In this document: one piece after another, positions 2,363 to 16,918 of the stretch | Layout of the letters: each line of letters begins with the position of its first letter | Position numbering within the stretch: the first letter of the stretch is position 1 | Origin: a virus | IMG/VR virus record: IMGVR_UViG_3300009009_000003 | Coordinates: 26,377-90,376 of that record | DNA length: 64,000 nucleotides | Direction: 5' to 3' (one strand) | Notes under the pieces: model-generated | What the model was told of the DNA's origin: nothing | Databases searched by the model: none | Seen by the model: the letters and a program-made list of their open reading frames with translations, nothing else | Program-made: the position numbers and the translations under genes

Positions 2363-2691
2363 TGGGTAATATTGATTATAAAAAAAGTCATAGAGAAAAG
2401 GGACTTTGCTTATTTTGTAGTAATAAAGCAGAACCATTTTCTGCTTATTGCAAAGAACACAGGGAAACCCACAGAATTTCTTCTCTTAAATACAAATGGG
2501 CAAATATATATGAGATTAGAAAAAAAGATAGAAAATTAAAAGAAAAAAGAATACTAGAAGGAAAATGTTCCCATTGTGGGAAACCTCTTGATAAGGGATG
2601 GACGAACAGAATTTGTGCAAATTGCTCCTCAAACACATTTTTCTTAGGAAGGTGGGTAAGAATTGAAACTATTAGAGAAAAAAATAAATAG
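2362..2691 (+). CDS. Small double zinc-finger protein
   Basis: A 109-residue basic protein with two Cys clusters: CLFCSNKA...YCKEH near residues 17-36 and CSHCGKPL...CANCS near residues 70-90, a pattern that should bind one or two zinc ions. The lysine/arginine-rich linker (KKDRKLKEKR) suggests nucleic-acid contact. It lacks the His-Asn-His residues of an HNH nuclease, although the Cys spacing resembles HNH-associated zinc sites. The start codon overlaps the endolysin stop and the 3' end overlaps the next gene by 29 bases. Function unknown. Confidence 0.65.
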   Translation: MGNIDYKKSHREKGLCLFCSNKAEPFSAYCKEHRETHRISSLKYKWANIYEIRKKDRKLKEKRILEGKCSHCGKPLDKGWTNRICANCSSNTFFLGRWVRIETIREKNK

Positions 2692-3586
2692 AGATTCCAA
2701 TATTTTTTTATTTGGGGACCAGCATATTGATAATCCCTTATACAATAAAAGATTATTTGAAATATTTATTAATTTAATATGTTCTGAGTATGAGGGTGTT
2801 TCAGAAAAATATAATTATGGAGTTGATCACGGTGATTTTATGGAAGCAATATTAATCACTGATAAAAGGATGAGCCGTTCTCTTGCTCTAACACCCAACT
2901 TTAAAAAACAAGATTTTATATTAGGACAATTAAACCAAGCTGTTGAGGACAGAAAACCAATTAAGAATAAATTGATTACTATATTACAAGGGAATCATCC
3001 TGATAAATTATGGCAATTTGGAAATCTAACAAATCAGCTTTGCCTTTCTTTGGGTGTTCCATATGGCACATGGTTAGCAAACATAAGATTTTTAGATAAA
3101 AAAGGTGAATTTCTATTTAGACATATTTGTGAACATGGAAGAAAATCAATAAATTCTTCAGCAGATAACACAGCTAGGCAAAGAACAAATATGGAACTAA
3201 TACTACAAAGACAATTACAAAAAAAATCAGGTACAGCTTTACTGATGAGTAAAGGGCATACTCACAGAATTTTAACCAAAACCCCTGAAAATTCTTCTTA
3301 TTTAGTAGATAAGAATGGGTGGTTTATTATGAAAAGAACTAATAGCAACACACCTTATGATGGATTCATTCCTCCTGATTTTAGATGGTATTGTTCTACA
3401 GGATGCTTTTTGGAACCTTATGTACATGATATGGAAGGGTATAATGAAATGTTGGATTATGATCCATTAGAACCAGGATTTGTGGTAGCAAAAATTAGAG
3501 ATGGTGCTATAGTGGGGCTTGATGAAGTAAGGTTGCTTACTCAATCTGAAGAAAAAATAGAAGTGTGCATTGACAAAAAAACATGA
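2663..3586 (+). CDS. Calcineurin-like metallophosphoesterase
   Basis: A 307-residue protein of the two-metal phosphoesterase superfamily. The ordered motifs are GDQHID (about 18-23, metal Asp and His), VDHGDFME (about 53-60), LQGNHPD (about 108-114) and GHTHR (about 195-199); together they supply the usual metal ligands and the Asn-His catalytic pair. The start is TTG, chosen because GGAAGG lies just upstream and MKLLEKKI reads directly into the first beta strand. Phage members act on DNA, RNA or small phosphoesters, and the substrate cannot be told here. It overlaps the zinc-finger gene before it. It is not the Mre11 of this phage, which is at 14406-15311. Confidence 0.8.
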   Translation: MKLLEKKINRDSNIFLFGDQHIDNPLYNKRLFEIFINLICSEYEGVSEKYNYGVDHGDFMEAILITDKRMSRSLALTPNFKKQDFILGQLNQAVEDRKPIKNKLITILQGNHPDKLWQFGNLTNQLCLSLGVPYGTWLANIRFLDKKGEFLFRHICEHGRKSINSSADNTARQRTNMELILQRQLQKKSGTALLMSKGHTHRILTKTPENSSYLVDKNGWFIMKRTNSNTPYDGFIPPDFRWYCSTGCFLEPYVHDMEGYNEMLDYDPLEPGFVVAKIRDGAIVGLDEVRLLTQSEEKIEVCIDKKT

Positions 3587-6318: not shown

Positions 6319-6567
6319 CTACTTGCTCTTCTTGCTAGTTTTCTTAGCCTTGATAGCAGGAGTTCCACGTTTAGTTGATTTGGTTGCTTCCTTCTTCATA
6401 TTGTCATCACCTCCTTTCTTTATAGAAATAACTGCTATTTTTGATAACTCTTTTATGAGATCATCAAAAGATTTTTTGGTCAACGTAATTGATCCATCAT
6501 CATTTTGGTTGTAAGGAATTCTGAGAACATTAGAATCGTACCATTCTTTTACTTTATAATTTTCCAT
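6319..6567 (-). CDS. Small protein with Lys-rich tail; possible nested short form
   Basis: An 82-residue protein whose first 50 residues are mixed helix/strand (SNVLRIPYNQNDDGSITLT, then a helix with KSFDDLIKEL). The last 26 residues are extremely basic (KKEATKSTKRGTPAIKAKKT). An in-frame ATG at codon 57 (6399) is preceded by GGAGGTGATGACAAT, a much better ribosome site than the one before the first ATG, so a 26-residue basic peptide may also be made alone. Such tails bind DNA or RNA nonspecifically. It overlaps the Rad50-like gene by 14 bases. No family recognised. Confidence 0.55.
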   Translation of the reverse strand: MENYKVKEWYDSNVLRIPYNQNDDGSITLTKKSFDDLIKELSKIAVISIKKGGDDNMKKEATKSTKRGTPAIKAKKTSKKSK

Positions 6568-7174
6568 TTTGGCTCTCCATTAGTTGTGAAATGTTTTTGT
6601 TTTTACTACAAATAAATGTTTTGTCTGCTGCTTGGTTTATATCCTGAGCATGGGAAACCATTAGTATTTGAATACCCAACTTCTCAGATATGGTTTTTAT
6701 CATTTCACTTACTCTAGTTTGAAGTTCCGGACTTACATTTCTAAAAGGTTCATCTAAGATTAAACAATTTCTATTTTTTCTTATTGACCAAAAAGCAATA
6801 CGAAGGGCAAACGAAACTATATCCAATACTCCACCACCAGAAGCATCAATGGGCTTATATTCTTGACCTTGTTCTTCAAACAATAAATCACATTCAGTTT
6901 TGTTTCTCCTAAGTTCAAATTTTACTTTAAAATTAGGAGGATTGTCAAACACTGAATGAAGTGCTAATGTTACAATATTAGAAATATGATATTCCAAACT
7001 AGATTGAGTTTGTCTGCCCACTGTTTGAAATATCGTTCTTACCATAGAATAATCAGATAAAAGCTTTAATGTGTCCTCCATTTTCTCTTTGTTTTTAATT
7101 AGATCATTCAGGCAAAGTTCTCTTTTTACCTTCTCCTTATCTAATATTTTTCTATATTCAGTTAAATCTCCCAT
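6554..7174 (-). CDS. C-terminal half of a Rad50/SbcC-type ATPase
   Basis: A 206-residue protein carrying only the second half of an ABC-type SMC/Rad50 ATPase: signature motif DASGGGVLD (about 110-118), Walker B CLILDEPF (about 137-144) followed by D-loop-like RNVSPE, and the H-loop MVSHAQD (about 170). A coiled-coil arm of about 60 residues precedes it. There is no Walker A; that half is encoded separately at 15313-16374, which ends at a zinc hook. The two proteins should assemble into one Mre11/Rad50-type machine with the nuclease at 14406. Here the gene overlaps a coiled-coil gene upstream by 13 bases. High confidence in the fold; assembly with the other half is inferred. Confidence 0.8.
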   Translation of the reverse strand: MGDLTEYRKILDKEKVKRELCLNDLIKNKEKMEDTLKLLSDYSMVRTIFQTVGRQTQSSLEYHISNIVTLALHSVFDNPPNFKVKFELRRNKTECDLLFEEQGQEYKPIDASGGGVLDIVSFALRIAFWSIRKNRNCLILDEPFRNVSPELQTRVSEMIKTISEKLGIQILMVSHAQDINQAADKTFICSKNKNISQLMESQNGKL

Positions 7175-7413
7175 TGGTATTCTTTCTTTAAGGCATTGAA
7201 TTTGTCTTCCAGTTCTTTTTCCAACTCAGTTAATTTTTCAGTTAGCTTGATTAAACCACCCTCAGCTTCTTCTATATTATTATAGTTAAACTGTTCTTTA
7301 AGTGTTTTCAAAAGCTCAGATAATCTCCCTTCTAGTCTTGCTTTATCCTCTTTTGCCTTATCAATCTCTTTTTCTAATTTGATTAATTCATTAATTATTT
7401 CTGTACTCTTCAT
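7162..7413 (-). CDS. Coiled-coil protein next to the Rad50 half
   Basis: An 83-residue protein that is almost entirely a charged heptad coiled coil (INELIKLEKEIDKAKEDKAR, then KLTEKLTELEKELEDKFNAL). It ends 13 bases inside the start of the Rad50 C-terminal half, so the two are likely translated together. It might extend the short coil arm of the split ATPase, or be an independent adaptor. No Cys hook and no enzymatic motif are present. Confidence 0.6.
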   Translation of the reverse strand: MKSTEIINELIKLEKEIDKAKEDKARLEGRLSELLKTLKEQFNYNNIEEAEGGLIKLTEKLTELEKELEDKFNALKKEYQWEI

Positions 7414-7714
7414 ATTTTTTCATAACTCCTGTCATTGTTTTGGGTTGTAAGTAACAAATTTTTATCTTTTTGTTTAAAGCAAAGCACATTCCAAAATCAA
7501 ATATAGTTCCAACACTTCTTTGATCCCAAAAAATATGAATTTCATCTGCCCATTCTATTAACTTTTTATTATGTAAGCAAACCTGTAACTCATCATAATT
7601 TGGGAAATCATCAAAAGCCGGTGTTTCAACAAAATTCCCCTGTGCAATCAACTCTTCTGCGTGTTCAACCATTGCTTTTTTATATGCGTGTGTTCCTATT
7701 ATGGTTATTTTCAT
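7391..7714 (-). CDS. Nucleoside 2-deoxyribosyltransferase-like protein
   Basis: A 107-residue Rossmann-type protein beginning MKITIIGTHAYKK. The ATG at 7714 is preferred over one 24 bases upstream because it forms an ATGA overlap with the stop of the preceding gene and has AGGAGA before it. The segment ADEIHIFWDQRSVGTIFDFG then MCFALNKKI matches the conserved core of the nucleoside 2-deoxyribosyltransferase/YtoQ-like group (D-x-F/W-D-x-x-S-x-G-T-x-x-E/D-x-G). The usual catalytic Glu position is Asp here, so activity is uncertain. It would fit nucleotide salvage or defence-related nucleotide chemistry. Confidence 0.65.
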   Translation of the reverse strand: MKITIIGTHAYKKAMVEHAEELIAQGNFVETPAFDDFPNYDELQVCLHNKKLIEWADEIHIFWDQRSVGTIFDFGMCFALNKKIKICYLQPKTMTGVMKKYEEYRNN

Positions 7715-8079
7715 ATTTTCTCTTCTCCTTTTCTCCATTTTCTAACACATCTATCAGATACACCCAGTTTTTGTGTTGCTTCTTGTATGCTTCCCAAAAA
7801 AACTTCATTCCTAAATACTCTATCCACATCCTCCTTTATACACTTAAATTTAAACATTAGTTTCCTTGTTTGTTTGGATGATCTGCCTCCTATCTTATTT
7901 ATTTTTGTGTTTTTAGGCATCCAGTTAATAACTGTATCAGGACTAACCCCCAATAATTTTCCTATTTCTCTGGAAGAGAAGGATAGATTGTGGTAAAAAA
8001 AACTTAAAAAAGAATCAATGTCTCCATCAAACCCCAATTCTTTTATTTTATTAATTGCTTCCCTTTTGTGTATTCTCAT
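7711..8079 (-). CDS. Protein with two helix-turn-helix motifs
   Basis: A 122-residue basic protein. Two HTH segments are visible: SSREIGKLLGVSPDTVINWM (about 35-54) and SIQEATQKLGVSDRCVRKWR (about 97-116), separated by a Lys-rich linker (SSKQTRKLMFKFKC). Two HTHs in one small protein suggests recognition of a bipartite site, as in some phage regulators or homing-type DNA-binding proteins. It is translationally coupled (ATGA) to the deoxyribosyltransferase-like gene. Target unknown. Confidence 0.65.
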   Translation of the reverse strand: MRIHKREAINKIKELGFDGDIDSFLSFFYHNLSFSSREIGKLLGVSPDTVINWMPKNTKINKIGGRSSKQTRKLMFKFKCIKEDVDRVFRNEVFLGSIQEATQKLGVSDRCVRKWRKGEEKI

Positions 8080-8090
8080 TTTCTTATTCC

Positions 8091-8852
8091 TTATACAAAT
8101 AATAAAGTTTGCGTACAGTGTAATCTTTCTTTTATTTTTTTATAGTAGTATTCATTTTTTTCTATTAGAATAAACCCTCGATTTAATTTTTTACAAGCTA
8201 CCCCTGTAGATCCAGAACCAGCACAGTTATCCAATACCAAATCCCCTTCGTTGGTATAGGTCTTAATTAAATACTCCATTAAAGATACTGGTTTTTGTGT
8301 TGGATGGTAACCTGTTTCCCTTTTTATTTTAATCACACTTTTTGGATAGCGAAGTCCATTATTTTGAGTTTGTTTTTTTACAATTTTCCCTGTAACTTCA
8401 CCGCTGTCACCCTTTCCACTTATGTAAGGTTTTCCGTAAGTAAACTGAGGATTGTATTTCCCCCCACCAAAAACAAGAATGTTTTCATGTGCTTTCATAG
8501 GTTGTTTCTTTGCACTTAAAAAATTTACACCTTGTTCCTTCTCCCAAATAATCTCATATTTAAACATATCAATATTACTCATCACTAAAGCACTTGTAAA
8601 AGGTTGAGAAGCGGTTAAAACTATTGCACCATTGTCTTTTATTATTCTCTTGTACTGCCTCCAAAGTGGTTCAAAAGGAATTACCGTATCCCATTTACAG
8701 GCAGTAGTTCCGTAGGGGGGGTCTGAAATTATTGCGTCTATTGATTTGTCGGGGATAAACTTCATAAGCTCAAGGCAGTCTCCCTGATGCACTTCATTTA
8801 TTTTTAGATGTCCGTTTTCTAAAATATGCATAGAATTTTTCTCAATCTTCAT
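8091..8852 (-). CDS. DNA methyltransferase, N6-adenine/N4-cytosine type
   Basis: A 253-residue methyltransferase of the beta (permuted) class. The catalytic motif IV is AIISDPPYGT (about 41-50), near the N-terminus, and the SAM-binding motif I is LVLDNCAGSGSTGVACKKL (about 205-223), near the C-terminus, preceded by the usual HPTQKP. DPPY predicts amino methylation of adenine or N4-cytosine. It has no linked endonuclease, so it is an orphan enzyme, most likely protecting phage DNA from host restriction or regulating it. The first ATG is used; an in-frame ATG 7 codons later is possible. Confidence 0.85.
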   Translation of the reverse strand: MKIEKNSMHILENGHLKINEVHQGDCLELMKFIPDKSIDAIISDPPYGTTACKWDTVIPFEPLWRQYKRIIKDNGAIVLTASQPFTSALVMSNIDMFKYEIIWEKEQGVNFLSAKKQPMKAHENILVFGGGKYNPQFTYGKPYISGKGDSGEVTGKIVKKQTQNNGLRYPKSVIKIKRETGYHPTQKPVSLMEYLIKTYTNEGDLVLDNCAGSGSTGVACKKLNRGFILIEKNEYYYKKIKERLHCTQTLLFV

Positions 8853-8881
8853 AGACTTCTTTGATTGTCATTGCTGTACCT

Positions 8882-9112
8882 CTAAATAATTGTGCAATAC
8901 TTACCAAGCAAATCCTTAAAGCAGTGCTGGCATAGTTCAATAGATACCTCAGTACCATCACCAAACACAGAATCATAGCCACAGTGGTTATGAAAAAAGA
9001 GAGCTTCCTGTTTTTCCACCTCATCACCTAGAATGTCTCGACCACAAACAGAACATGTTATCCCAACAAGATCTAGTTCTTCTTTGACTACCATTCCATA
9101 CTGTCTCATCAC
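8882..9112 (-). CDS. Small zinc-binding protein, paralogue A
   Basis: A 76-residue protein with CSVCGRDI (about 20), a HNHCGYDSVFGDGTEV block and LCQHCF (about 60), which should bind zinc. It is about 65 percent identical to the protein at 9893-10120, including the identical end LGKYCTII, so the two are recent duplicates. I recall proteins with the same GYGSVFGDG core in enterobacterial and other phages, of unknown function. It lies at the downstream edge of the patchwork array that runs to 14411. Confidence 0.75.
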   Translation of the reverse strand: MMRQYGMVVKEELDLVGITCSVCGRDILGDEVEKQEALFFHNHCGYDSVFGDGTEVSIELCQHCFKDLLGKYCTII

Positions 9113-9133
9113 TCATCCTCCACCGGACATACA

Positions 9134-9313
9134 TTAGTTATCCTTTCTAAATAACCACTTATCAAAGAACCAGAAGCAGCAGGCACCTATTGCCTGTGCC
9201 ACAAGCAGGTTGCCCCATAGTGGCAGTCCCTTATACTGCATATAGTCCATTGGCGGTATCATTACCAGACCAGATATTTGCCATCTCAGGTGATACAGGC
9301 CATAACGTCTCAT
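9134..9313 (-). CDS. Small membrane protein, 59 residues
   Basis: The start at 9313 is chosen because its ATG overlaps the previous stop (ATGA) and GAGGAGA lies 6 bases upstream; a longer in-frame version has no such signals. The product has two probable membrane spans, around LRWQISGLVMIPPM and NLLVAQAIGACCFWFF, and ends with a basic cytoplasmic-type tail (KWLFRKDN). GC content here is visibly higher than in flanking replication genes. Function unknown. Confidence 0.6.
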   Translation of the reverse strand: MRRYGLYHLRWQISGLVMIPPMDYMQYKGLPLWGNLLVAQAIGACCFWFFDKWLFRKDN

Positions 9314-9510
9314 TCTATCTCCTCTACAGTAACCCTGACCCTCTTTGGCGGCCACTTAGTCCAGCGTGATCTTGGTGTCTTGCTTGCATATACCCATGTA
9401 CCCCACTGCGGCCACGGCTTGCTGTCTATGGTGTCGCAGTATCGTCTCAATGGCACGGTCTCAGTCGGATCGATCCAACCCTCTACCTGCTGTATAACTT
9501 TGCGTTTCAT
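9310..9510 (-). CDS. Small Trp-rich protein, 66 residues
   Basis: A 66-residue protein (MKRKVIQQVEGWIDPTET at the start) rich in Trp, Pro and Arg; a short core SKPWPQWGTWVYASKT suggests a small beta fold. It begins at a GGTGAAGGAATG junction shared by seven array genes and ends in an ATGA overlap with the small membrane protein. I recall similar short proteins in enterobacterial phages but cannot give a function. Its GC-richer codons differ from the flanking replication genes. Confidence 0.6.
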   Translation of the reverse strand: MKRKVIQQVEGWIDPTETVPLRRYCDTIDSKPWPQWGTWVYASKTPRSRWTKWPPKRVRVTVEEIE

Positions 9511-9881
9511 TCCTTCACCACTGTTTCTTTGTGTTTAGAAATAGCTCTATTATACTCCTTCAGTAGACTTTCTACCCTAGAAGTAGTTGCAGTATTAAAT
9601 TCTTCTAAACAAGTTGCAAGATATTGACCCAGAATAACATCTGATTCATAAACTGCTTCCCTAAGTGCCTCTTTTCTTTTTTTCTCCCCTCTACTATTCC
9701 ACTTATCTACGGCAAGACTATTATCATACTCCTCGCATTCAACATATGGCCCACTTGCCATGCATTCTATACAAACTATCTGCGTTCCAACTAATCCATT
9801 TGGTAACATATCCTCAATACTATCCTCTAGTAATGTTGATCCACAAAACGGACAAGGCAAAGCTGGTTTCTTTGGTTTCAT
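9507..9881 (-). CDS. Lar-like zinc-ribbon protein (restriction alleviation family)
   Basis: A 124-residue protein with an N-terminal domain of the Lar type: LPCPFCGS (about 8-15), VCIECMASGP (about 36-45), then a helix and VDKWNSRG (about 59-66), which is the usual ending W-N-x-R. The founding member, Lar of Rac prophage, relieves type I restriction; many phage relatives have only the zinc ribbon and are untested. The C-terminal half here is an added helical segment ending in VVKE, whose codons carry the ribosome site for the next gene. The domain call is strong, the activity inferred. Confidence 0.7.
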   Translation of the reverse strand: MKPKKPALPCPFCGSTLLEDSIEDMLPNGLVGTQIVCIECMASGPYVECEEYDNSLAVDKWNSRGEKKRKEALREAVYESDVILGQYLATCLEEFNTATTSRVESLLKEYNRAISKHKETVVKE

Positions 9882-9892
9882 TCCTTAACCTC

Positions 9893-10120
9893 CTATATAA
9901 TAGTGCAATACTTGCCAAGAAGCTCCTTAAAGCAGTGCTGGCACAGATCAATATACACCTCTGTGCCATCACCAAACACAGAACCATATCCACAGTAATT
10001 ATGAAAATGCATTGCCTCCTGCCGTTCCATTTTATCATTCAAGAGATCACGCTTACAAACAGAGCATTTTATCTCAACAACATCTCTTTCCTCTCTAGTT
10101 ATGATTCCGTATCGTCTCAT
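9893..10120 (-). CDS. Small zinc-binding protein, paralogue B
   Basis: A 75-residue protein with CSVCKRDL, HNYCGYGSVFGDGTEVYIDL and CQHCF, the same layout as the protein at 8882-9112. Duplicates this close, in the same direction and separated by three unrelated genes, indicate tandem copying followed by insertion or shuffling. Start ATG lies in a GGTGAAGGAATG junction overlapping the previous stop. Function unknown. Confidence 0.75.
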   Translation of the reverse strand: MRRYGIITREERDVVEIKCSVCKRDLLNDKMERQEAMHFHNYCGYGSVFGDGTEVYIDLCQHCFKELLGKYCTII

Positions 10121-10380
10121 TCCTTCACCTTACTCATTAAAATTTTAATCTGTTCTTGTGTTAATATATTTTTAAGAACTCTAAGATTTGTCCATTTTCT
10201 GTTTTTATTTCCACTTCCCCAACATTCGTCACATACGTCACTAGTAATAACATTACCACCCACACCACCGTGCCAAGTGCATGTTTGTCCGTATGCTTTA
10301 ACACCCCATCCCGAACATTTTGTGCAAACATCCTCTTCATAATCTATGCCTCTATGAAGCATTATGTCTCGTAGGTTCAT
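10117..10380 (-). CDS. Cys-rich DnaJ-zinc-finger-like protein
   Basis: An 87-residue protein, starting at the ATG at 10380 (ATGA overlap, GGAGGTGAAGG upstream). Two CxxCxGxG-like repeats are visible, CTKCSGWGVKAYG and CDECWGSGN, with CTWHGGVGG between them, as in the zinc-binding region of DnaJ. A helical tail (LKNILTQEQIKILMSKVKE) closes it. The J domain is absent, so it is not a chaperone in the usual sense. The last four codons (VKE and stop) double as the ribosome site of the following gene. Confidence 0.65.
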   Translation of the reverse strand: MNLRDIMLHRGIDYEEDVCTKCSGWGVKAYGQTCTWHGGVGGNVITSDVCDECWGSGNKNRKWTNLRVLKNILTQEQIKILMSKVKE

Positions 10381-11033
10381 TCCTTCACCTCCACACACTC
10401 AGGACATATCCTGCCTGATAGATCATGTCGATCATAGTTTATCCCCCAACTCAATTTTGTATTTGGTTTTTCTAACACCCTATATCTAGTATCGTGTTCA
10501 CATTGCTTCCAAACACACCAAAAAGTATCCATCGTTGGTGATTTTCCCCTCTCTCCGTTACAAAAATCTGGCCTCCATGTTAATGCTAATATATATGCTG
10601 GTGGATACTTTCGAAACAGTTCTACTCTTCTCTTTGCGTGCCAATATTGTGATTTCAATAAATAACAGAACATTTTAGCCCCCAACTCCATCGCCTTTAG
10701 AATAAACCCCTCTGACACATTAAACGGAGGATTCGTAATAATACCGAATTCTACTTTAAATGGAATTTCATTTTTAGTTACTGTTAAAAAATCAACTTGT
10801 TTTTCACAGAATTCTGTAGATCGAATATCCGTTCCATAGGTGCAATATCCTCTTTTCTCTAAAACTTTTCTTATATGACCACTACCACAAGCACATTCCC
10901 AAATTGGTATCTCAGTGTCAATGTTCATAAAATCCAATAATGCTTCCGTAGCCTCTGTAGGAGTACAGTAATAATCTGCTGGATCGGAATACTCTGTATT
11001 TCTTTTGTTTGTTAATGACTGACCATTAAGCAT
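10377..11033 (-). CDS. DNA adenine methyltransferase-like protein
   Basis: A 218-residue protein. The ATG at 11033, with GGGGAAAGG nine bases upstream, is preferred over a TTG at 11069 that lies within a palindrome. The SAM-binding motif I appears as WECACGSGHI (about 46-55) and the catalytic motif as GIITNPPFNV (about 98-107), an NPPF typical of gamma/alpha-type N6-adenine methyltransferases. The order I then IV differs from the enzyme at 8091, so the two are unrelated in layout. It is shorter than usual and lacks a clear target-recognition domain. It ends ECVEVKE with an in-frame ribosome site. Confidence 0.75.
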   Translation of the reverse strand: MLNGQSLTNKRNTEYSDPADYYCTPTEATEALLDFMNIDTEIPIWECACGSGHIRKVLEKRGYCTYGTDIRSTEFCEKQVDFLTVTKNEIPFKVEFGIITNPPFNVSEGFILKAMELGAKMFCYLLKSQYWHAKRRVELFRKYPPAYILALTWRPDFCNGERGKSPTMDTFWCVWKQCEHDTRYRVLEKPNTKLSWGINYDRHDLSGRICPECVEVKE

Positions 11034-11053
11034 ATATTGTACCTTTCCCCATT

Positions 11054-11069
11054 TTGTTAACGTTAACAA
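11054..11069. promoter_or_regulatory. 16-bp perfect palindrome, possible operator
   Basis: TTGTTAACGTTAACAA is its own reverse complement. It lies in the 72-base gap between the RNA ligase gene and the methyltransferase gene, 21 bases before the latter's ATG. Position and symmetry suggest a site for a dimeric regulator; no promoter boxes are obvious. Confidence 0.5.
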
Positions 11070-11105
11070 TATGCCATTATTTTCCCTACGTCAGAAAAAT
11101 GATCA

Positions 11106-11702
11106 TCATACTTCCCACTTGCCTTTCTCGTCTTTCTCGAATGTCTTTTTCATCATAAAGTTTCCTGCCGTATGGTAAATGACTATGCCTTCAGGCTTCA
11201 TAAAACATGGGGCAGCGTAACTACCATGTTCTGCAAGCATGGCCATTACTTGAGACACATTCAAGTCATCCATGTTACACTCAAACAATATAGGCACCAG
11301 ACCAATACACTCCGGCAATACCTGCTGCATCTCTGAAATTCTCGGGTCACCTGTTAGTATCTCTTTTGGTTCGCTGCCATACAGGCACCACCTGGTCACA
11401 TTGAACAGGCTAAATCGCTTTTCGCCCTTTGACAGACCATAACCACGCTGGATTCCGCTGCCCCACCATTCTCCAAAGTGCCTGCCTAGACCTAGCTGCA
11501 TAAGCTCGTCCTTGTGGTCATGCGCCCACCTTGAGAAACCATGGTTATCCTTGTCTGGTGTTATCCATCGTGTCCTGCTGCCAGTAAGAAACTCACCATC
11601 ATCGCCAATGAATATCTGTGCGTTAGTACCGTCGATTTTCTCAGTGACGATAACTTTCCGTGAATAACGTGCTATCTTTTGTAATCCTACAAAATCACTC
11701 AT
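11106..11702 (-). CDS. RNA ligase (nucleotidyltransferase superfamily)
   Basis: A 198-residue protein with the ligase motif order: motif I VTEKIDGTNAQIFI with the AMP-accepting Lys (about residue 22), motif III FGEWWGSGIQRGY (about 76-88), motif IV PEGIVIYH (about 168-175) and motif V MMKKTFE (about 182-188). The KxDGTN core and small size fit the Rnl2-like RNA ligase group more than DNA ligases. It may repair RNA cut by host anticodon nucleases. Its ATG sits directly on the SD-encoding tail of the upstream DUF1566 gene (ATGA overlap). Codons are GC-richer than neighbours at 6-8 kb. Confidence 0.75.
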   Translation of the reverse strand: MSDFVGLQKIARYSRKVIVTEKIDGTNAQIFIGDDGEFLTGSRTRWITPDKDNHGFSRWAHDHKDELMQLGLGRHFGEWWGSGIQRGYGLSKGEKRFSLFNVTRWCLYGSEPKEILTGDPRISEMQQVLPECIGLVPILFECNMDDLNVSQVMAMLAEHGSYAAPCFMKPEGIVIYHTAGNFMMKKTFEKDEKGKWEV

Positions 11703-12118
11703 GTTGCCTCCTTATTAAGTTCTGCTATCAGCCTATTTGCTTCATCCCATGTGCAAGGACCTAAGGTTTTCTTACTCCACACAAGGTATGTCGCAGGATC
11801 AAACACAGCAGATCGATTTGTATAGAATGTTTTTCCATTAGGCATTAGTTTGATATTCATATCATCCGGTGGAGCAAACCCATTCCGCACCGCGCGAACG
11901 TAGTAGTGACCGTCCTTACTGTAGTTGAGGACGCTACCGTCGTCGAAATACACGATCCACGCGCCGTATGGACCGTAGGCAGTAGTATTAGAAGACCAAT
12001 AGGAGGACGACTGTGTGTCAGGAAATAGGTCAGTGTTAATAGCAGGATTGTCTCTACTATAATCCACTAAAGAAATAAGCTCTTGTATTTTTGGCAGTCT
12101 CCAGTCGGTGTACTTCAT
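11699..12118 (-). CDS. Permuted DUF1566 (C-type-lectin-fold) protein, copy 1
   Basis: A 139-residue protein of the DUF1566/Lcl-C-terminal group: MKYTDWRLPKIQEL, INTDLFPDTQ, YWSS, AWIVYF and YVRAVRNG occur in family order. In usual members the segment WxxxTxxxCTWxxA precedes the TDWRLP strand; here that part (YLVWSKKTLGPCTWDEANRL) comes last, so the gene looks circularly permuted. Compared with copy 2 (14008), the framework is nearly identical but the codons between DTQ and RAVR differ mainly at first and second positions, a diversifying pattern. The last residues LIAELNKEA are shared with two other genes and encode AAGGAGG for the next gene. Probably a binding protein; ligand unknown. Confidence 0.7.
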   Translation of the reverse strand: MKYTDWRLPKIQELISLVDYSRDNPAINTDLFPDTQSSSYWSSNTTAYGPYGAWIVYFDDGSVLNYSKDGHYYVRAVRNGFAPPDDMNIKLMPNGKTFYTNRSAVFDPATYLVWSKKTLGPCTWDEANRLIAELNKEAT

Positions 12119-12309
12119 TCTTTTATCTCCGCATCTCGGCAGCGTTTGAGTCGCTTGGGGTTCCAGTTTGTAGTTGGAAACTTATGGTTAAATAACCTAC
12201 AAAAATGACTGTCAAAGGTAAATCGTAACCAGTTACAACAAAGCCTTCCATTGCAGCACCTCGTCTTAGTGACATCCTTGCCTAAGTCAATCAATGGTCT
12301 TATCTTCAT
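12115..12309 (-). CDS. Small Cys-rich protein, paralogue 1
   Basis: A 64-residue protein starting MKIRPLIDLGKDVTKTRC, with Cys at about 18-19, 24-25, 37 and 57, probably a zinc site. It is homologous to the protein at 12619-12816 (shared MKIRxLIDLG start, PKRLK and CR near the end). Its start lies in a GGTGAAGGAATG junction and its end (EIKE) carries a weaker version of the same junction. Function unknown. Confidence 0.65.
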   Translation of the reverse strand: MKIRPLIDLGKDVTKTRCCNGRLCCNWLRFTFDSHFCRLFNHKFPTTNWNPKRLKRCRDAEIKE

Positions 12310-12322
12310 TCCTTCACCTCCT

Positions 12323-12622
12323 CTACCTATTTAACTCATCTCTTACAATAGACCTGACACGTTTAACGAGTGCATCAGTATCAATTCCAGCTCTCTTTAA
12401 ATCTTCTTCAAGAATCTTCAGTGGTATGTCCTGTATAAAATCATATTTGGCATCAAAAAAGGGGCTTTCGATTATGGTTACATTTTCTTTTACCACCAGT
12501 TCGCTTATTCTATACATACCTTTTGCCACTATCTCAACAGCCTTGTCATATTCTTTATTTCTTATTAATAGGGATAATGTAGCTAGCATATTATAGATTT
12601 GCTCATACTCTTGTATCGTCAT
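12323..12622 (-). CDS. Helical protein of unknown function
   Basis: A 99-residue protein, mostly helical (IQEYEQIYNMLATLSLLIRN, then KEYDKAVEIVAKGMYRISEL), ending in a basic helix (VKRVRSIVRDELNR). No Cys, no membrane span, no known motif. It is preceded by a GGAGGTGAAGGAATG junction overlapping the upstream stop. It separates the two copies of the Cys-rich paralogue, which suggests it inserted or travelled with them. Confidence 0.65.
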   Translation of the reverse strand: MTIQEYEQIYNMLATLSLLIRNKEYDKAVEIVAKGMYRISELVVKENVTIIESPFFDAKYDFIQDIPLKILEEDLKRAGIDTDALVKRVRSIVRDELNR

Positions 12623-12816
12623 TCCTTCACCTCCATCTCACGACAAATCTTAAGTCGCTTTGGTTCTTTGTTGCCAAATGGGAGAACTAGGTTAAAGGCC
12701 TCACAGTACACATGACCAGAAGACGTATCAAGGAACCGGCATTTTTTTAAACCATTTTTAGTAGCGCATTTTGTGGTAGTAACATCTCCCAAGTCAATCA
12801 ACATGCGTATCTTCAT
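12619..12816 (-). CDS. Small Cys-rich protein, paralogue 2
   Basis: A 65-residue protein starting MKIRMLIDLGDVTTTKC, with Cys at about 17, 26, 38 and 58, homologous to the protein at 12115-12309. Three of the Cys positions and the NKEPKRLKICRE segment align with the copy. The start sits in a GGTGAAGGAATG junction placed after, not over, the preceding stop. The EVKE end encodes GAGGTGAAGGA, the ribosome site of the downstream gene. Function unknown. Confidence 0.65.
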   Translation of the reverse strand: MKIRMLIDLGDVTTTKCATKNGLKKCRFLDTSSGHVYCEAFNLVLPFGNKEPKRLKICREMEVKE

Positions 12817-12828
12817 TCCTTCACCTCA

Positions 12829-13650
12829 TCATTCAGTTTTGGCATACACATATATAACGCCATTAACACATCCAAATAGTGCATAACCTTTTTGCCATAC
12901 TTGCCATGCTGCCTTAGAATATTTAATATGTTTCCTGTTTAGCTTTAAACCATGGCATATACAATTACATGCCACATAATTTGCAGCATCCCAGGCAGCA
13001 TACCTGGCATCATTCCAGGCAGCATCCCAGGCAGCATTCCAGGCATCATACCTGGCAGCATCACAGGCAGCATTACTGGCAGCATTACCGGCAGCATCAC
13101 AGGCAGCATTCCTGGCATCATACCTGGCAGCATTACTGGCAGCATCACAGGCAGCATTCCTGGCAGCATTACTGGCAGCATACCTGGCAGCATTACTGGC
13201 AGCATCACAGGCAGCATTCCTGGCATCATACCTGGCAGCATACCAAGTTTTTCCAGTAAACAGTTTCCATGACTTTAATGGTTTTCCGTCCGGTTTTAAA
13301 AATTGCACATGCTTGATACTATCAACAAAATCAATAGCATCTAACCACCATTTAGGATGTTGTACTGGCTTTAGCAACCGTGCCCCAACAAAAACCGATT
13401 TATCGTCCTGGTGTATAGCACCATCCAGTATTGGCTCCGCCTCATAGCAGATACAATTCCATTTGTACCATTGATAAGGTTTGGTGGTCAGATGGATTCC
13501 ACTACTACACATAACAATGTCATCATCAATCTTGTGCCATTTACCTGGTGTCCACTTTCCTTTTTTATCTTGCTTAGGCAGTGACCAGGTAAGATCACCG
13601 CCGTTGCATGACTTACCATCAACCAGTATTTTGTAATATTTGGTTTTCAT
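12829..13650 (-). CDS. DUF7666-type protein with 22 Ala-rich tetrapeptide repeats
   Basis: A 273-residue protein. The N-terminal domain (about 1-135) has the marks KILVDGKSCNGGDLTWSLP, KWTPGKWHK, CSSGIHLT and CYEAEP, which I recognise from a phage/bacterial family (DUF7666). It is followed by about 22 tandem four-residue repeats of the form [AD]A-x-[NDY] (AARY, DARN, AACD, AASN and so on, about residues 137-225) and a short C-terminal domain (SKAAWQVWQKGYALFGCVNG). Family members often carry such Ala-rich arrays, probably helical, of variable length. The array is a 12-bp minisatellite at DNA level. Function unknown; immunity roles proposed for relatives are unproven. Confidence 0.7.
   Translation of the reverse strand: MKTKYYKILVDGKSCNGGDLTWSLPKQDKKGKWTPGKWHKIDDDIVMCSSGIHLTTKPYQWYKWNCICYEAEPILDGAIHQDDKSVFVGARLLKPVQHPKWWLDAIDFVDSIKHVQFLKPDGKPLKSWKLFTGKTWYAARYDARNAACDAASNAARYAASNAARNAACDAASNAARYDARNAACDAAGNAASNAACDAARYDAWNAAWDAAWNDARYAAWDAANYVACNCICHGLKLNRKHIKYSKAAWQVWQKGYALFGCVNGVIYVYAKTE
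12975..13243 (-). repeat. 12-bp coding minisatellite (tetrapeptide array)
   Basis: About 22 units of 12 bp with the plus-strand core GGCAGCATtaCt/caCa/tcCt or GGCATCATACCT. It lies in the DUF7666-type gene and encodes [AD]A-x-[NDY]. Because the unit is a multiple of three without stops, long empty frames appear on both strands. Confidence 0.85.
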
Positions 13651-13659
13651 TCCTTCACC

Positions 13660-13743
13660 TCATTTCATTCCTTTAGTAACCATATATGCTATAACTAGGT
13701 TTATAATAATAGCAATAATTAACAGGTAAAGGTTATCATCCAT
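13660..13743 (-). CDS. 27-residue membrane micropeptide
   Basis: ATG at 13743 follows GAGGTGAAAGAATA, and the frame MDDNLYLLIIAIIINLVIAY MVTKGMK is one membrane span with an acidic start and basic end (positive-inside orientation). It fits the 84 bases between two coding genes exactly, ending 10 bases before the next start. Two other micropeptides of the same plan exist at 32466 and 38413. Expression is not proven. Confidence 0.5.
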   Translation of the reverse strand: MDDNLYLLIIAIIINLVIAYMVTKGMK

Positions 13744-13744
13744 A

Positions 13745-14011
13745 TTATTCTTTCACCTCACTCAACTTATGCCAAATTATGCAGGCGTAGTGTGCCAGCT
13801 TCAGCATGTCACGTTTCTGCTCCTCGGAACCCCTGGCATTGTTGCCAAACCTGGCACAATATTTTTTTATGTCGTTGATAATCTCAGCAGGCGATAGCTC
13901 GGTGCATCGGTCTTGGCCCTTCTCGCCGTATTGTTTTACGGTGTAATGCTCGATGTGATCATCAACGATGCTGCTAAACCAAGACCATTCGCCTCTGCGT
14001 GTTTCCATCAT
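13745..14011 (-). CDS. Conserved small phage protein, unknown
   Basis: An 88-residue protein with a recognisable core: VKQYGEKGQDR, IINDIKKYCARFGNNARGSE and HYACIIWHKL. I have seen the YGE...YxxRFGxNARGxxEQxxDxxKxAHYA pattern in other phage proteins but know no function. Mostly helical, no Cys cluster. The ATG at 14011 overlaps the upstream stop and uses the AAGGAGG encoded by the LIAELNKEAI tail of the DUF1566 copy 2 gene. Its own end is EVKE. Confidence 0.65.
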   Translation of the reverse strand: MMETRRGEWSWFSSIVDDHIEHYTVKQYGEKGQDRCTELSPAEIINDIKKYCARFGNNARGSEEQKRDMLKLAHYACIIWHKLSEVKE

Positions 14012-14409
14012 ATCGCCTCCTTATTAAGTTCTGCTATCAGTTCATTGGCTTCGTACCATGTGCAAATGCCTAGAGTTTTCTGCATCCATATAAGACCTGT
14101 ACTATTATCAGTGACTGTGCCATCTCCATTATCAGTGAACTTTGGATCAGCATTTAATGACCCACACTGTCCGGACCGCACCGCACGAAAGTAGTTGTAG
14201 TGGTCCTTAAAGTAGTAGTAGACGTTGCCGTAGCTGAAACTCACGACCCATGCGGAGTAGGGAGTGCCGACAAGGGTAGTAGACGACCAATAGCCGTACG
14301 CCTGCGTGTCAGGAAATAGGTCAGTGTTAATAGCAGGATCAAACTTGCTTCTATCTACTATAGAATTTAGTTCATCAACTGTAGGTAACCGCCAGTCGGT
14401 GTATTTCAT
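14008..14409 (-). CDS. Permuted DUF1566 (C-type-lectin-fold) protein, copy 2
   Basis: A 133-residue protein: MKYTDWRLPTVDELNSIV, AINTDLFPDTQ, YWSSTT, AWVVSF, FRAVRSG, then FTDNGDGTVTDNSTGLIWMQ and CTWYEANELIAEL. In ordinary DUF1566 proteins the NGDGTVTDNxTGLxW segment opens the domain and TDWRLP follows, so the order here is permuted by a stop/start placed before KYTDW. Between DTQ and RAVR the codons are mostly NNC/NNT with Tyr, Asn, Ser, Gly, Asp and His, the signature of a hypervariable lectin surface. Ends with LIAELNKEAI, the tail shared with the Mre11-like gene. A diversity-generating system is a possible source, but no reverse transcriptase is in the window. Confidence 0.7.
   Translation of the reverse strand: MKYTDWRLPTVDELNSIVDRSKFDPAINTDLFPDTQAYGYWSSTTLVGTPYSAWVVSFSYGNVYYYFKDHYNYFRAVRSGQCGSLNADPKFTDNGDGTVTDNSTGLIWMQKTLGICTWYEANELIAELNKEAI
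14016..14040 (-). repeat. SD-encoding junction repeat, copy at DUF1566 copy 2
   Basis: A 25-bp sequence that occurs identically at 14016-14040, 14414-14438 and 11707-11731. On the coding strand it encodes LIAELNKEA and contains AATAAGGAGG, the ribosome site of the downstream gene. Confidence 0.85.
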
Positions 14410-15311
14410 ATCGCCTCCTTATTAAGTTCTGCTATCAGCTTGTTTACTAATTCTTTCACACAATTTTCTATATTGTTTGCCACCATAAAATTTTCCAAGT
14501 TGTTTTCAAATTTTAAATTTTCCATTATCTTATCTTCACTAAGACCATTAACAAAGGCTTCCAATTTTCTATTAATCTCCTTTTCTTTTTCTAATAGTGA
14601 CAAATCAAAAACGTTATCTTTTACCGGTATTTCTACTCTTTTAGCATTTAATGTTTGTGTATCATAAACAAAAAAACAAGGTTTATGATCAACTTGTGTT
14701 ATGTCCATTCGCATTAATGACCCAGGATTTATTAACATTCTGCTTCCATTTTGTACTGTAAAAGTTTTGTGGTTATCCCCTGTAACAATAAGATCATAAA
14801 AACTGTTAGCATTTAAAAATTCTACAGCATCCATTGAATTAGGAACTTCTTCTCTAAAACAAATAAGACCATGGTAGATCAAAATATTGAATAAATTTGT
14901 ATCTTCAACTTTAGGTATTGTTTCTCCAAAATTACAAAAGTAAATCTTTTCTTTTGTTTTCTTTTCTTCTTGACAAAAATCGGTTCTACTGGAAATAAAT
15001 ACTTTTGCACTTTCTAAAACTGCTAGTGGTGTATTGTCCATCTTATCATTTGAATGGTATCGCATATCGTGTTGTCCGAAAACACCAATCATAGTGGTTT
15101 TAGAAAGAATTTGAATCATGGTTCTTAAAGTTTCGTATGAAATTTTCTTTGTATGGAAGATATCCCCACAATTAAGAATATCCATATTTTCACGACAAGA
15201 ATATGAAACGATGTAATTAATCTTTCTAATTTGTTCTTTAACATAATCATCAGTCCTTCTTTTTGGTGGTTGGTCTGTAATATGCCAATCACTAGTTATT
15301 ATATACTTCAT
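14406..15311 (-). CDS. Mre11/SbcD-type nuclease (T4 gp47-like)
   Basis: A 301-residue metallophosphoesterase of the Mre11 group. Motifs in order: ITSDWHITD (about 5-13), NCGDIFHTK (about 46-54), VFGQHDMRYH (about 76-85), ILIYHGL (about 142-148) and VTGDNHKTF (about 173-181), covering the two-metal site. The C-terminal helix should dock on the Rad50 coiled coil. It is followed immediately upstream by the Rad50 N-terminal half (1-base gap), and the C-terminal half is 7 kb away. The last 11 residues, KLIAELNKEAI, are identical to the end of the DUF1566 copy 2 protein and appear to have been added by recombination at the gene border. Confidence 0.85.
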   Translation of the reverse strand: MKYIITSDWHITDQPPKRRTDDYVKEQIRKINYIVSYSCRENMDILNCGDIFHTKKISYETLRTMIQILSKTTMIGVFGQHDMRYHSNDKMDNTPLAVLESAKVFISSRTDFCQEEKKTKEKIYFCNFGETIPKVEDTNLFNILIYHGLICFREEVPNSMDAVEFLNANSFYDLIVTGDNHKTFTVQNGSRMLINPGSLMRMDITQVDHKPCFFVYDTQTLNAKRVEIPVKDNVFDLSLLEKEKEINRKLEAFVNGLSEDKIMENLKFENNLENFMVANNIENCVKELVNKLIAELNKEAI

Positions 15312-15312
15312 A

Positions 15313-16374
15313 TTAAATCCTTATTTCTTGTTTACACAAAGGGCATATCTTTTGTTCAGACAAAAAGGTTTTGTGTTTATCCATTAAATCATCAGTTAAT
15401 TTTTCCCCCACTGCTAATAAAGAATAATTTTTTCTGATATCCTCCACTTTTCTGTTTAATTTATTATGTTCAGTGGATAAATTCACACACTCTTCTGCTA
15501 TATCTTTCAATTCAATTATTTTCCGTATTGGTTTTACTTTCTGCTCCAAATTTACAACATCTTTACTTATTTTGGTTATATCACAGCACAGTTTTTTTAG
15601 ATTTTTTTGATTATTTGAAGCATCAGTTAATTTATTCAAAACAATTTTGATTTCATTTACTAAGTATTCCCCTTCCAAATACTCAATAGTATTTTGTAAA
15701 GCGGTCTTAGTTATGCAAACCCTCTTTATAATTTCATTTAAAGAATATGATGTTCGTTTTTTATCAGAGATATCATTTACTACAGATTCGAGATGTCTTA
15801 ATTTACTGTCCTTTTCTTCTAAATCTACATAAGTATCCAATTCAATTGTACAGGATTCGATTTTTTCGTTTATGTCTTTTAGTTCTGAATTTATCGAATT
15901 TATTTTTTTGTTTGTGCGCTCCAAGCACAAATCTATTATATCAATACCAACCAGCTTATTTAATAGTTTTGCTACTGAACCGGATGAATCTTGTAAAAGA
16001 TAATACCCTTCATGTTGGGAAAGAAAGTTAATTTCATTCATATTAAGAATATTCAAGACCTCATCAGGAACATCTGTTCCCAATGCTGTTAATAAGCAAT
16101 CATTTATTTGATAGTAATGTGTCTTTCCACGAACATGGTGTACATAAGAATTATCGTTGAAGTAAATTTTTACGGACGTGTCTTCTTTATCAGAAGAAAA
16201 GAAGGATTTAAATGGGGTTCCTGATGGTCTATTAAAAAGAACCCATTTAATTGCTCTCATTACGGAACTTTTCCCAGAGTGGGAAGCCCCTTTAATAATA
16301 TTGACCCCATTGGAAAGTTCTAATGTAGTATTCTTATGACTTTGAAAATTTTCTATTTCTATTTTACTTATCAT
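15313..16374 (-). CDS. N-terminal half of Rad50/SbcC ATPase with zinc hook
   Basis: A 353-residue protein: KIEIENFQSHKNTTLEL opens the ATPase lobe, Walker A is KGASHSGKSSVMRAI (about 28-42), and the Q-loop region is NFLSQHEGYYLL (about 115-126). A long coiled coil (about 160-335) ends in the hook motif CPLCKQE at 345-351, just two residues before the stop. A full Rad50 would continue back down the coil to Walker B; here the chain ends at the hook, and the missing part is the separate gene at 6554. The split therefore lies at the natural hinge. Partner of the nuclease at 14406. Confidence 0.85.
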   Translation of the reverse strand: MISKIEIENFQSHKNTTLELSNGVNIIKGASHSGKSSVMRAIKWVLFNRPSGTPFKSFFSSDKEDTSVKIYFNDNSYVHHVRGKTHYYQINDCLLTALGTDVPDEVLNILNMNEINFLSQHEGYYLLQDSSGSVAKLLNKLVGIDIIDLCLERTNKKINSINSELKDINEKIESCTIELDTYVDLEEKDSKLRHLESVVNDISDKKRTSYSLNEIIKRVCITKTALQNTIEYLEGEYLVNEIKIVLNKLTDASNNQKNLKKLCCDITKISKDVVNLEQKVKPIRKIIELKDIAEECVNLSTEHNKLNRKVEDIRKNYSLLAVGEKLTDDLMDKHKTFLSEQKICPLCKQEIRI

Positions 16375-16918
16375 TTTGCATCTTTTCTTTATCTAAAACT
16401 TTGTATAGGAATGTATCCAAGGTTGTTATTGTAATATGATGTGGGCAAAGATTTAATAAAGTACAATCTAACGGCACTTTGGCAAAGGGCATGTTGTAGA
16501 GAACATTACTAAAAGCAGCACAAATCAAACCATTGTTTCTTTTGAATATGATTAATGGTACTTTCTTATTGTGAAAGTCGCACTCTTTTTGTGCTTTATT
16601 AAACCAATCAAGAAAAATGTTTTTTGTTTTTGGTTTATCTATAAAATTTAGAAAATCTATTTTTTCACCATATCCCCTTTTAACTTCCACAAGAAAGATG
16701 TCAGTGAAAATCTTCCCTTCCTCTTCTTCGTGTTTAATATCTCCTGCACCAAATGGTAGGGACTTACCTTTTTTACTTTTTGTTGTTGCTCTTGCTCCTG
16801 ATGCATCAGTTCTCCAAAATATATCTTCGTTTATTCCATCACTTATCCAAAGAGATAATATTCTCGAAATGTCTCTTTCAAATTGTCTCCCCTTTGCACC
16901 TCCACCACCTTTTCTCAT
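16364..16918 (-). CDS. PD-(D/E)XK nuclease, Holliday-junction-resolvase-like
   Basis: A 184-residue protein with the layout of small phage restriction-fold nucleases: GGGGAKGRQFERDISR (about 3-18) with the Glu of motif I, FWRTDASGAR, GAGDIKHE (about 56-63, metal Asp) and TDIFLVEVKRG (about 70-80, the E-x-K pair). A C-terminal half with FNKAQKE and LIIFKRNN completes the core. Phage enzymes of this shape resolve branched DNA or act as recombination endonucleases. The position between Rad50 and RecA-like genes fits. Overlaps the Rad50 half by 11 bases. Confidence 0.65.
   Translation of the reverse strand: MRKGGGGAKGRQFERDISRILSLWISDGINEDIFWRTDASGARATTKSKKGKSLPFGAGDIKHEEEEGKIFTDIFLVEVKRGYGEKIDFLNFIDKPKTKNIFLDWFNKAQKECDFHNKKVPLIIFKRNNGLICAAFSNVLYNMPFAKVPLDCTLLNLCPHHITITTLDTFLYKVLDKEKMQNDK

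What the first reader, a model, noticed from the sequence alone, without database searches (positions are those of the whole stretch)
6554..16374. Split Rad50/SbcC: halves encoded 8 kb apart, cut at the zinc hook
15313-16374 carries Walker A and a coil ending at CPLC two residues before the stop; 6554-7174 carries a coil, the signature motif, Walker B and H-loop but no Walker A. Together they make one complete Rad50 minus part of the return coil. A small coiled-coil protein is coupled to the second half. Rad50 is normally one chain; a split at the hook would let halves be exchanged independently and may change hook dimerisation.
Basis: partly seen in the sequence, partly recalled or inferred. 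Interest (0 to 1): 0.7.

Follow-up and report, generated by a model that had tools for sequence, protein, structure and literature searches.

The report
Phage Rad50 split at its zinc hook
Many phages, including this one, build the DNA-break-handling ATPase Rad50 from two separately encoded halves cut at the zinc hook, accompanied by a small coiled-coil protein and an Mre11 nuclease, while some bacterial megaplasmids carry the two halves re-joined in reverse order, an arrangement I found no published description of.

Summary
15313-16374(-) is a Rad50 N-half (Walker A, Q-loop, arm) that stops 6 residues after CPLC. 6554-7174(-) is a Rad50 C-half (signature-like GGG, Walker B, H-loop; no Walker A). 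The 90-kb record has no other SbcC. Profiles of both halves have Rad50 as their best solved-structure match.

The split is not peculiar to this genome. In viral contigs the order N-half, Mre11, small coiled-coil protein (cc), C-half recurs (75 of 114 distinct C-half loci; most others are cut-off stretches). 91 of 97 distinct N-type chains end within 20 residues of CxxC (control ORFs 2.5%). In complete phage genomes the halves can lie about 105 kb apart, yet both are present.

Two fusion types tie the parts together: Mre11 fused to the N-half (two Firmicutes plasmids), and proteobacterial megaplasmid proteins in which the C-lobe precedes the N-lobe and the chain ends at CxxC, a natural circular permutation of Rad50.

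Best reading: the ATPase head assembles in trans and works with Mre11 as an SbcCD-type end nuclease. How the hook-ended arm and cc work is unknown. New variant of a known kind; a 2011 paper noticed a 'missing segment' without explaining it.

The parts
15313..16374 (-). Rad50/SbcC N-half (353 aa): N-lobe, coiled-coil arm, terminal CPLC hook
16267..16290 (-). Walker A (residues 29-36)
   Evidence: sequence; G29, G34, K35 invariant in 68 sequences
15334..15345 (-). CPLC half zinc hook (residues 344-347), 6 residues before the stop
   Evidence: sequence; C344 68/68 and C347 67/68
14406..15311 (-). Mre11/SbcD-like nuclease (301 aa)
   Evidence: Pfam Metallophos_2 1.2e-09; family profile best hits are Mre11, 1.1e-16; metal-site residues kept with N-to-Q and H-to-D changes
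7162..7413 (-). small coiled-coil protein cc (83 aa), two predicted helices 3-42 and 47-78
6554..7174 (-). Rad50/SbcC C-half (206 aa): short coil plus C-lobe; start overlaps the cc stop
6830..6838 (-). signature-like GGG (residues 113-115)
   Evidence: sequence and alignment to P. furiosus Rad50 SGGE
6749..6763 (-). Walker B LILDE (residues 138-142)
   Evidence: D141, E142 invariant
6650..6652 (-). H-loop His175
   Evidence: His in 86/99 C-halves

Best explanation
The N-half and C-half are two chains of one Rad50/SbcC-type ATPase. They assemble in trans into a normal two-lobed head: Walker A and Q-loop from N; signature-like motif, Walker B and H-loop from C. Two such heads should sandwich ATP and act with the co-encoded Mre11-like nuclease on phage DNA ends during recombination or replication. 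The head-proximal coil is probably N helix 145-181 paired with the roughly 40-50-residue helix at the C-half start. Beyond that point the arm belongs to the N-chain alone (built from a 47-residue repeat) and ends in a free CxxC that can still form half of a zinc hook with a second N-chain. The small cc protein is a fourth conserved component that probably packs on the arm. Shown by sequence: complementary motifs, Rad50 homology, conserved association, C-N and Mre11-N fusions, hook-terminal N-chain. Inferred: trans assembly, ATP-driven nuclease action, zinc-mediated pairing, cc binding site.
For: Profile of 71 N-halves: best solved structures are Rad50 (3aux 9.1e-20, 5f3w 4.3e-19), SMC weaker at 1e-10. 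Profile of 104 C-halves: best are Rad50 C-lobe chains 3qkr_B 2.3e-16 and 1ii8_B 1.1e-15. The partner N-lobe chains 3qkr_A and 1ii8_A are top Foldseek hits of the N-half model, so this Rad50 head was solved as two separate chains. No C-half has Walker A and no ORF hits both profiles in the viral set. Order N-Mre11-cc-C in 75 of 114 distinct loci, another 24 compatible but truncated. N-half found in 26 of 33 whole records examined, mostly ones where the short stretch lacked it; several of the rest are small fragments. Complete genome Tunturi_5 has N and Mre11 about 105 kb from C. Fusions: C-lobe then N-lobe in 10 of 10 megaplasmid replicons read, Walker B before Walker A; Mre11-N in two Firmicutes plasmids. 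Mre11 profile best hits are Mre11. RecA/UvsX-like and PDDEXK genes adjoin.
Against: No complex was modelled or assayed; only single chains could be predicted. The signature lacks the usual Glu/Gln (GGG, not SGGE) and the preceding Ser is in only 43/99. By structure alone the N-lobe is tied between Rad50, SMC, RecF and RecN. Magritte phage has N, Mre11 and C but no hook Cys. A few records carry a C-half with no detectable N-half (G043 of 83 kb, G024 of 67 kb; linear, may be incomplete).
Confidence: 0.9

Rival explanations
1. The cc protein is the missing hook-proximal piece of the return coil: a three-piece Rad50 in which N-arm, cc and C-half coil rebuild the normal antiparallel coiled coil.
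For: cc lies directly upstream of the C-half in most loci, half of them within 20 nt, which is where the return coil would be encoded; N-cc-C order is collinear with intact Rad50 in L147, L171 and L172. The cc profile aligns weakly with both the N-arm base and the C-half coil.
Against: The N-arm comes in classes of about 155, 200, 248 and 300 residues while cc stays near 80 and the C coil near 57; no correlation (rho 0.10 and -0.09). cc is predicted as two helices with a turn, not one return helix. Profile matches are at 52% probability and coiled coils match easily.
Confidence: 0.3
2. N-half and C-half are parts of two different ATPases, each homodimeric, that merely sit in one phage.
For: The halves are separate genes, 8 kb apart here and about 105 kb apart in Tunturi_5.
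Against: Each half lacks motifs the other supplies; they co-occur with Mre11 and cc; they are fused as C-N in megaplasmids.
Confidence: 0.02
3. The split is an artefact or is repaired after transcription (frameshift, intron, intein or trans-splicing), so the working protein is a normal single-chain Rad50.
For: Adjacent genes often overlap by a few bases.
Against: Seen in about 100 distinct loci, complete isolate genomes and plasmids. Mre11 lies between the halves in most loci; the stop falls just after CxxC with a varied tail; in megaplasmids the join is made at the opposite end. Intein-type domains were not seen in the halves.
Confidence: 0.02
4. The complex is a defence or counter-defence SMC-like machine rather than a DNA-end nuclease for phage recombination.
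For: PADLOC weak matches: N-half to LmuB 8.7e-14, C-half to mad3 9.6e-12.
Against: Those scores fit general SMC/Rad50 kinship; the constant partner is an Mre11-like nuclease, not Lamassu or MADS partners; neighbours are recombination genes.
Confidence: 0.06

Closest known systems
Rad50/SbcC with Mre11/SbcD (archaeal MR, E. coli SbcCD, T4 gp46/gp47)
   Same: Lobe sequences, ATPase motifs, coiled-coil arm, CxxC hook, Mre11-like partner.
   Different: Two chains cut at the hook, no full return coil, extra cc subunit, GGG instead of SGGE; Mre11 metal-site changes N-to-Q and H-to-D in most members.
Two-chain P. furiosus Rad50 ATPase crystal constructs (1f2t, 1ii8, 3qkr)
   Same: N-lobe and C-lobe as separate polypeptides forming one head.
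   Different: Laboratory constructs with the arm removed; here the split is natural and keeps the arm and hook.
Mre11/Rad50 fusion proteins (Yoshida et al. 2011, PMC3175470)
   Same: Mre11-Rad50 fusions on viruses and plasmids; the authors note that Bacillus phage 0305phi8-36 and Anaerostipes lack one P-loop NTPase segment, possibly an Mre11-N fusion of the kind found here.
   Different: They did not look for the missing C-half and describe no split, hook truncation, cc or permutation.
PHROG families 16465 (exonuclease) and 15167 (ATPase)
   Same: All N-halves and all C-halves in the alignments match these.
   Different: Annotated as unrelated families, not as two parts of one protein.
Intact phage Mre11-Rad50 fusions (RHph_Y65, vB_AbaM_3098)
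   Same: Homologous lobes.
   Different: One chain of about 940-960 aa with SGGQ signature and full return coil.

Membership tests
Rad50/SbcC | N-lobe with Walker A and Q-loop | tested here: met
   G29, G34, K35, Q120 invariant; best profile hits Rad50
Rad50/SbcC | C-lobe with Walker B Asp-Glu and H-loop | tested here: met
   D141, E142 invariant, H175 in 86/99; best hits Rad50 C-lobe
Rad50/SbcC | ABC signature SGG[EQ] | tested here: inconclusive
   GGG occupies the site; Glu/Gln absent, Ser in 43/99. The search pattern itself required GGG, but BLAST-found members also lack Glu/Gln
Rad50/SbcC | CxxC zinc hook on the coiled-coil arm | tested here: met
   91 of 97 within 20 residues of the chain end; Magritte lacks it
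Rad50/SbcC | single chain N-coil-hook-coil-C with full-length return coil | tested here: not met
   two ORFs; C-half coil about 57 residues against N-arm of 150-300
Rad50/SbcC | genetic partnership with Mre11/SbcD | tested here: met
   fusion
Rad50/SbcC | ATP-dependent head dimerisation and control of Mre11 nuclease | not testable with these tools
   needs biochemistry or complex modelling
Mre11/SbcD | metallophosphoesterase motifs | tested here: met
   D8, H10, D50, H81, H147, H181 conserved; N80 is Q in 49/72 and the first H of GHxH is D in 59/72
Mre11/SbcD | C-terminal helix-loop-helix that binds the Rad50 coil base | not tested
   a conserved C-terminal region exists but was not modelled
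SMC (Smc, MukB, RecN, RecF) | hinge domain or kleisin partner rather than CxxC hook and Mre11 | tested here: not met
   arm ends in CxxC, partner is Mre11-like; SMC scores lower by sequence; structure alone is tied
Lamassu (LmuB) | LmuA/LmuC partners | tested here: not met
   constant neighbours are Mre11-like and cc; the other window parts gave no Lamassu match

The most novel reading that the evidence does not exclude
These are 'open-hook' Rad50 complexes: a distinct, old architecture of mobile elements in which the chain ends lie at the hook, the distal arm is a single-chain, modular 47-residue-repeat rod with no return strand (pairing with a second N-arm, itself or cc), and a dedicated cc subunit takes over part of the hook or arm function. 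Split and circularly permuted forms are two states of the same design.
Probability: 0.4. Interest if true: 0.85.

Novelty: new variant of a known kind. Interest (0 to 1): 0.75.

Why it matters
Rad50's hook loop is usually treated as the fixed link between the two arm strands. Here nature has cut it there and elsewhere re-joined the chain at the other end, so an intact hook loop is not needed to keep the system. This gives natural separation-of-function material for long-standing questions: what the hook and return coil do, whether arms must be paired, and how arm length matters (it changes in steps of about 47 residues). It also explains many phage genes annotated separately as 'exonuclease' and 'ATPase', and shows that absence of a full SbcC in phage annotation does not mean absence of the complex.

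Tried and rejected
Reading genome search' long 'open frames' (1307, 1402 aa) as N-C fusions was checked by translation and rejected: many stops lie between the halves. Homopolymer-like explanations of CxxC at the end were rejected by control ORFs. Foldseek of cc found nothing useful, E at best 8. The Variovorax C-N fusion had no relative in viral contigs or phages by these searches, only plasmids. Autocorrelation of permuted arms shows no 47-residue peak, so the repeat claim is limited to the phage/Firmicutes type. A tree of both lobes with three intact phage proteins as outgroup puts the permuted forms in one clade (support 1.0) but does not resolve whether they derive from split forms (supports 0.10-0.24). 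Bacillus phage 0305phi8-36 could not be fetched under the two accession numbers tried, so the idea that its 'missing segment' is a separate C-half is untested. Paper searches for a published split or permuted Rad50 found none; only open-licence papers are held.
Full report
What is there. The window is bases 26377-90376 of a 90,376-base virus record. On the minus strand lie, in transcription order: a PDDEXK-like ORF 16364-16918, the N-half 15313-16374, an Mre11-like ORF 14406-15311, then about 7 kb of other genes, then cc 7162-7413 and the C-half 6554-7174. N-half: AAA_23 at 7e-15, PHROG exonuclease family 16465 at 1.5e-39 and SbcC family 77 over profile positions 298-637. C-half: PHROG ATPase family 15167 at 3e-29 and SbcC family 77 over 828-956. 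Searched with SbcC family 77, the whole record shows only these two complementary pieces.

The halves are Rad50 by sequence. With deep alignments, the best solved structures for the N-half are Rad50 of Methanocaldococcus and Pyrococcus (9.1e-20 downwards; SMC about 1e-10), and for the C-half the Pyrococcus Rad50 C-lobe (2.3e-16). The crystal chains 1ii8_A/B and 3qkr_A/B are N- and C-lobes as separate polypeptides; the A chains are top Foldseek hits of the N-half model and the B chains the top profile hits of the C-half. So a Rad50 head in two chains is known to fold. By structure alone the N-lobe is tied between Rad50, SMC, RecF and RecN.

The split is widespread. The split was first seen in Bacillus phage vB_BboS-125 and Microcystis phage Mvi-JY20. 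Among 114 distinct C-halves the order is N-Mre11-cc-C in 75, Mre11-cc-C in 15, cc-C in 9, C alone in 11 and other in 4; stretches that lack parts are mostly cut off. Where whole records were searched for the N-half, 26 of 33 had it, several of the rest being small fragments. Complete isolate genomes show dispersal: Tunturi_5 has C at 19 kb and N and Mre11 at 124-128 kb of 308 kb, Magritte has C at 0.3, N at 93.8 and Mre11 at 119.7 kb of 133 kb. Cellular-genome scans gave the same cluster in prophage-like contigs, e.g. Mre11-N-cc-C in a Tissierellia MAG.

The cut is at the hook. Of 97 distinct N-type chains (split, Mre11-fused and permuted together) 91 end within 20 residues of a CxxC, median 8 residues; three more end in variants such as CPVTGEYC, one carries a 58-residue extension and one has a CxxC 37 residues from the end; only Magritte plainly lacks it. 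Control ORFs of at least 150 aa from the same loci: 30 of 1210. No C-half carries Walker A, and no ORF in the viral set hits both halves.

Fusions that tie the parts together. Plasmid searches led to Aneurinibacillus and Jeotgalibacillus plasmids with an Mre11-N fusion followed by cc (Aneurinibacillus also shows a separate C-half), to Alkaliphilus pB6464 (Mre11-N-cc-C) and Bacillus velezensis p3 (N-cc-C-x-Mre11), and to a megaplasmid family in which one ORF holds the C-lobe first and the N-lobe second. All ten replicons read (Variovorax, Alteromonas, Bosea, Acidiphilium, Pseudomonas x2, Vibrio, Aeromonas, Rhizobium, Methylorubrum) have Walker B before Walker A and a CxxC near the end, usually with a cc-like ORF upstream and an Mre11-like ORF downstream. 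The order cc-(C-N)-Mre11 is a rotation of N-Mre11-cc-C. They form one clade (support 1.0), but the direction of change is unresolved.

The arm. The predicted N-half has helix 145-181, a break, and one helix 185-341 up to the CPLC (mean pLDDT 89). Arm lengths fall in classes: 151-159 (8), 190-205 (46), 244-252 (11), with few between, and about 300 in the Bacillus-type forms. Self-comparison shows a 47-residue repeat (lag 47 score -0.18; block-shuffled maximum -0.58). C-half coil (median 57 residues) and cc (about 80) do not scale with it. So the distal arm has no return strand of matching length; it may pair with a second N-arm, fold on itself, or be covered by cc. A straight helix in a single-chain prediction does not decide this. 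cc is predicted as two helices, 3-42 and 47-78, with a near-invariant Gly29.

The Mre11-like partner. Its profile finds Mre11 first (1.1e-16). Metal-site residues are kept except Asn to Gln in GNHD (49/72) and the first His of GHxH to Asp (59/72). Whether this changes metal use is unknown.

Mechanism, with status. Shown: two complementary Rad50 lobes on separate genes, hook-terminal N-chain, constant Mre11 and cc company, fusions. Inferred: head assembly in trans, ATP-dependent sandwiching of two heads, nuclease control, zinc pairing of terminal CxxC, use in phage recombination or replication (RecA/UvsX-like, RNA ligase and helicase genes nearby).

Novelty. PHROGs hold the halves as two unrelated families. 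The vB_BboS-125 genome paper does not discuss them. A jumbo-phage survey treats SbcC/SbcD as ordinary. Yoshida et al. 2011 (PMC3175470) describe Mre11/Rad50 fusions and remark that two lack one NTPase segment. I found no description of the split, the permutation or cc in the papers available. The laboratory two-chain Rad50 constructs show the head can work as two chains, which lowers the surprise about assembly but not about the hook-ended arm and the permuted forms. Hence 'new variant of a known kind'.

Noticed in passing
window 14406-14448, 14008-14050, 11699-11741: A 43-nt repeat (86-88% identical) joins the 3' end of the Mre11-like gene to the 3' ends of two Lcl_C-domain genes; it carries an AAGGAGG ribosome-binding-like stretch inside the LNKEA tail codons. 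Cassette insertion behind Mre11 may be what moved cc and the C-half 7 kb away.
   Followed up: partly
window 12916-13277: About 20 tandem 12-nt units inside ORF 12829-13650, giving an Asn/Asp-Ala-Ala repeat protein with no Pfam match.
   Followed up: no
window 41248-44163: A 971-aa terminase-like ORF interrupted by a Hint plus LAGLIDADG homing-endonuclease segment, i.e. a likely intein.
   Followed up: no
window 2663-3586: A second, unrelated phosphoesterase-like ORF with a weak match to a PHROG DNA repair exonuclease family (4e-05).
   Followed up: no
A10 alignment; window 14406-15311: Most Mre11-like partners carry GQHD instead of GNHD and GDNH instead of GHxH at the metal site.
   Followed up: partly
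N-half arms (A7); plasmid loci L171, L175, L183: N-arm length is quantised and has a 47-residue internal repeat; permuted megaplasmid arms instead carry proline-rich breaks such as VPTLPELPVL and show no 47-residue peak.
   Followed up: partly
L169 1339-2391 (Microbacterium phage Magritte): An N-half without any hook cysteines in a phage that has the other parts: a natural hook-less case.
   Followed up: no
L006 6152-6724: In phage vB_BboS-125 an AP2-domain gene sits between N-half and cc.
   Followed up: no
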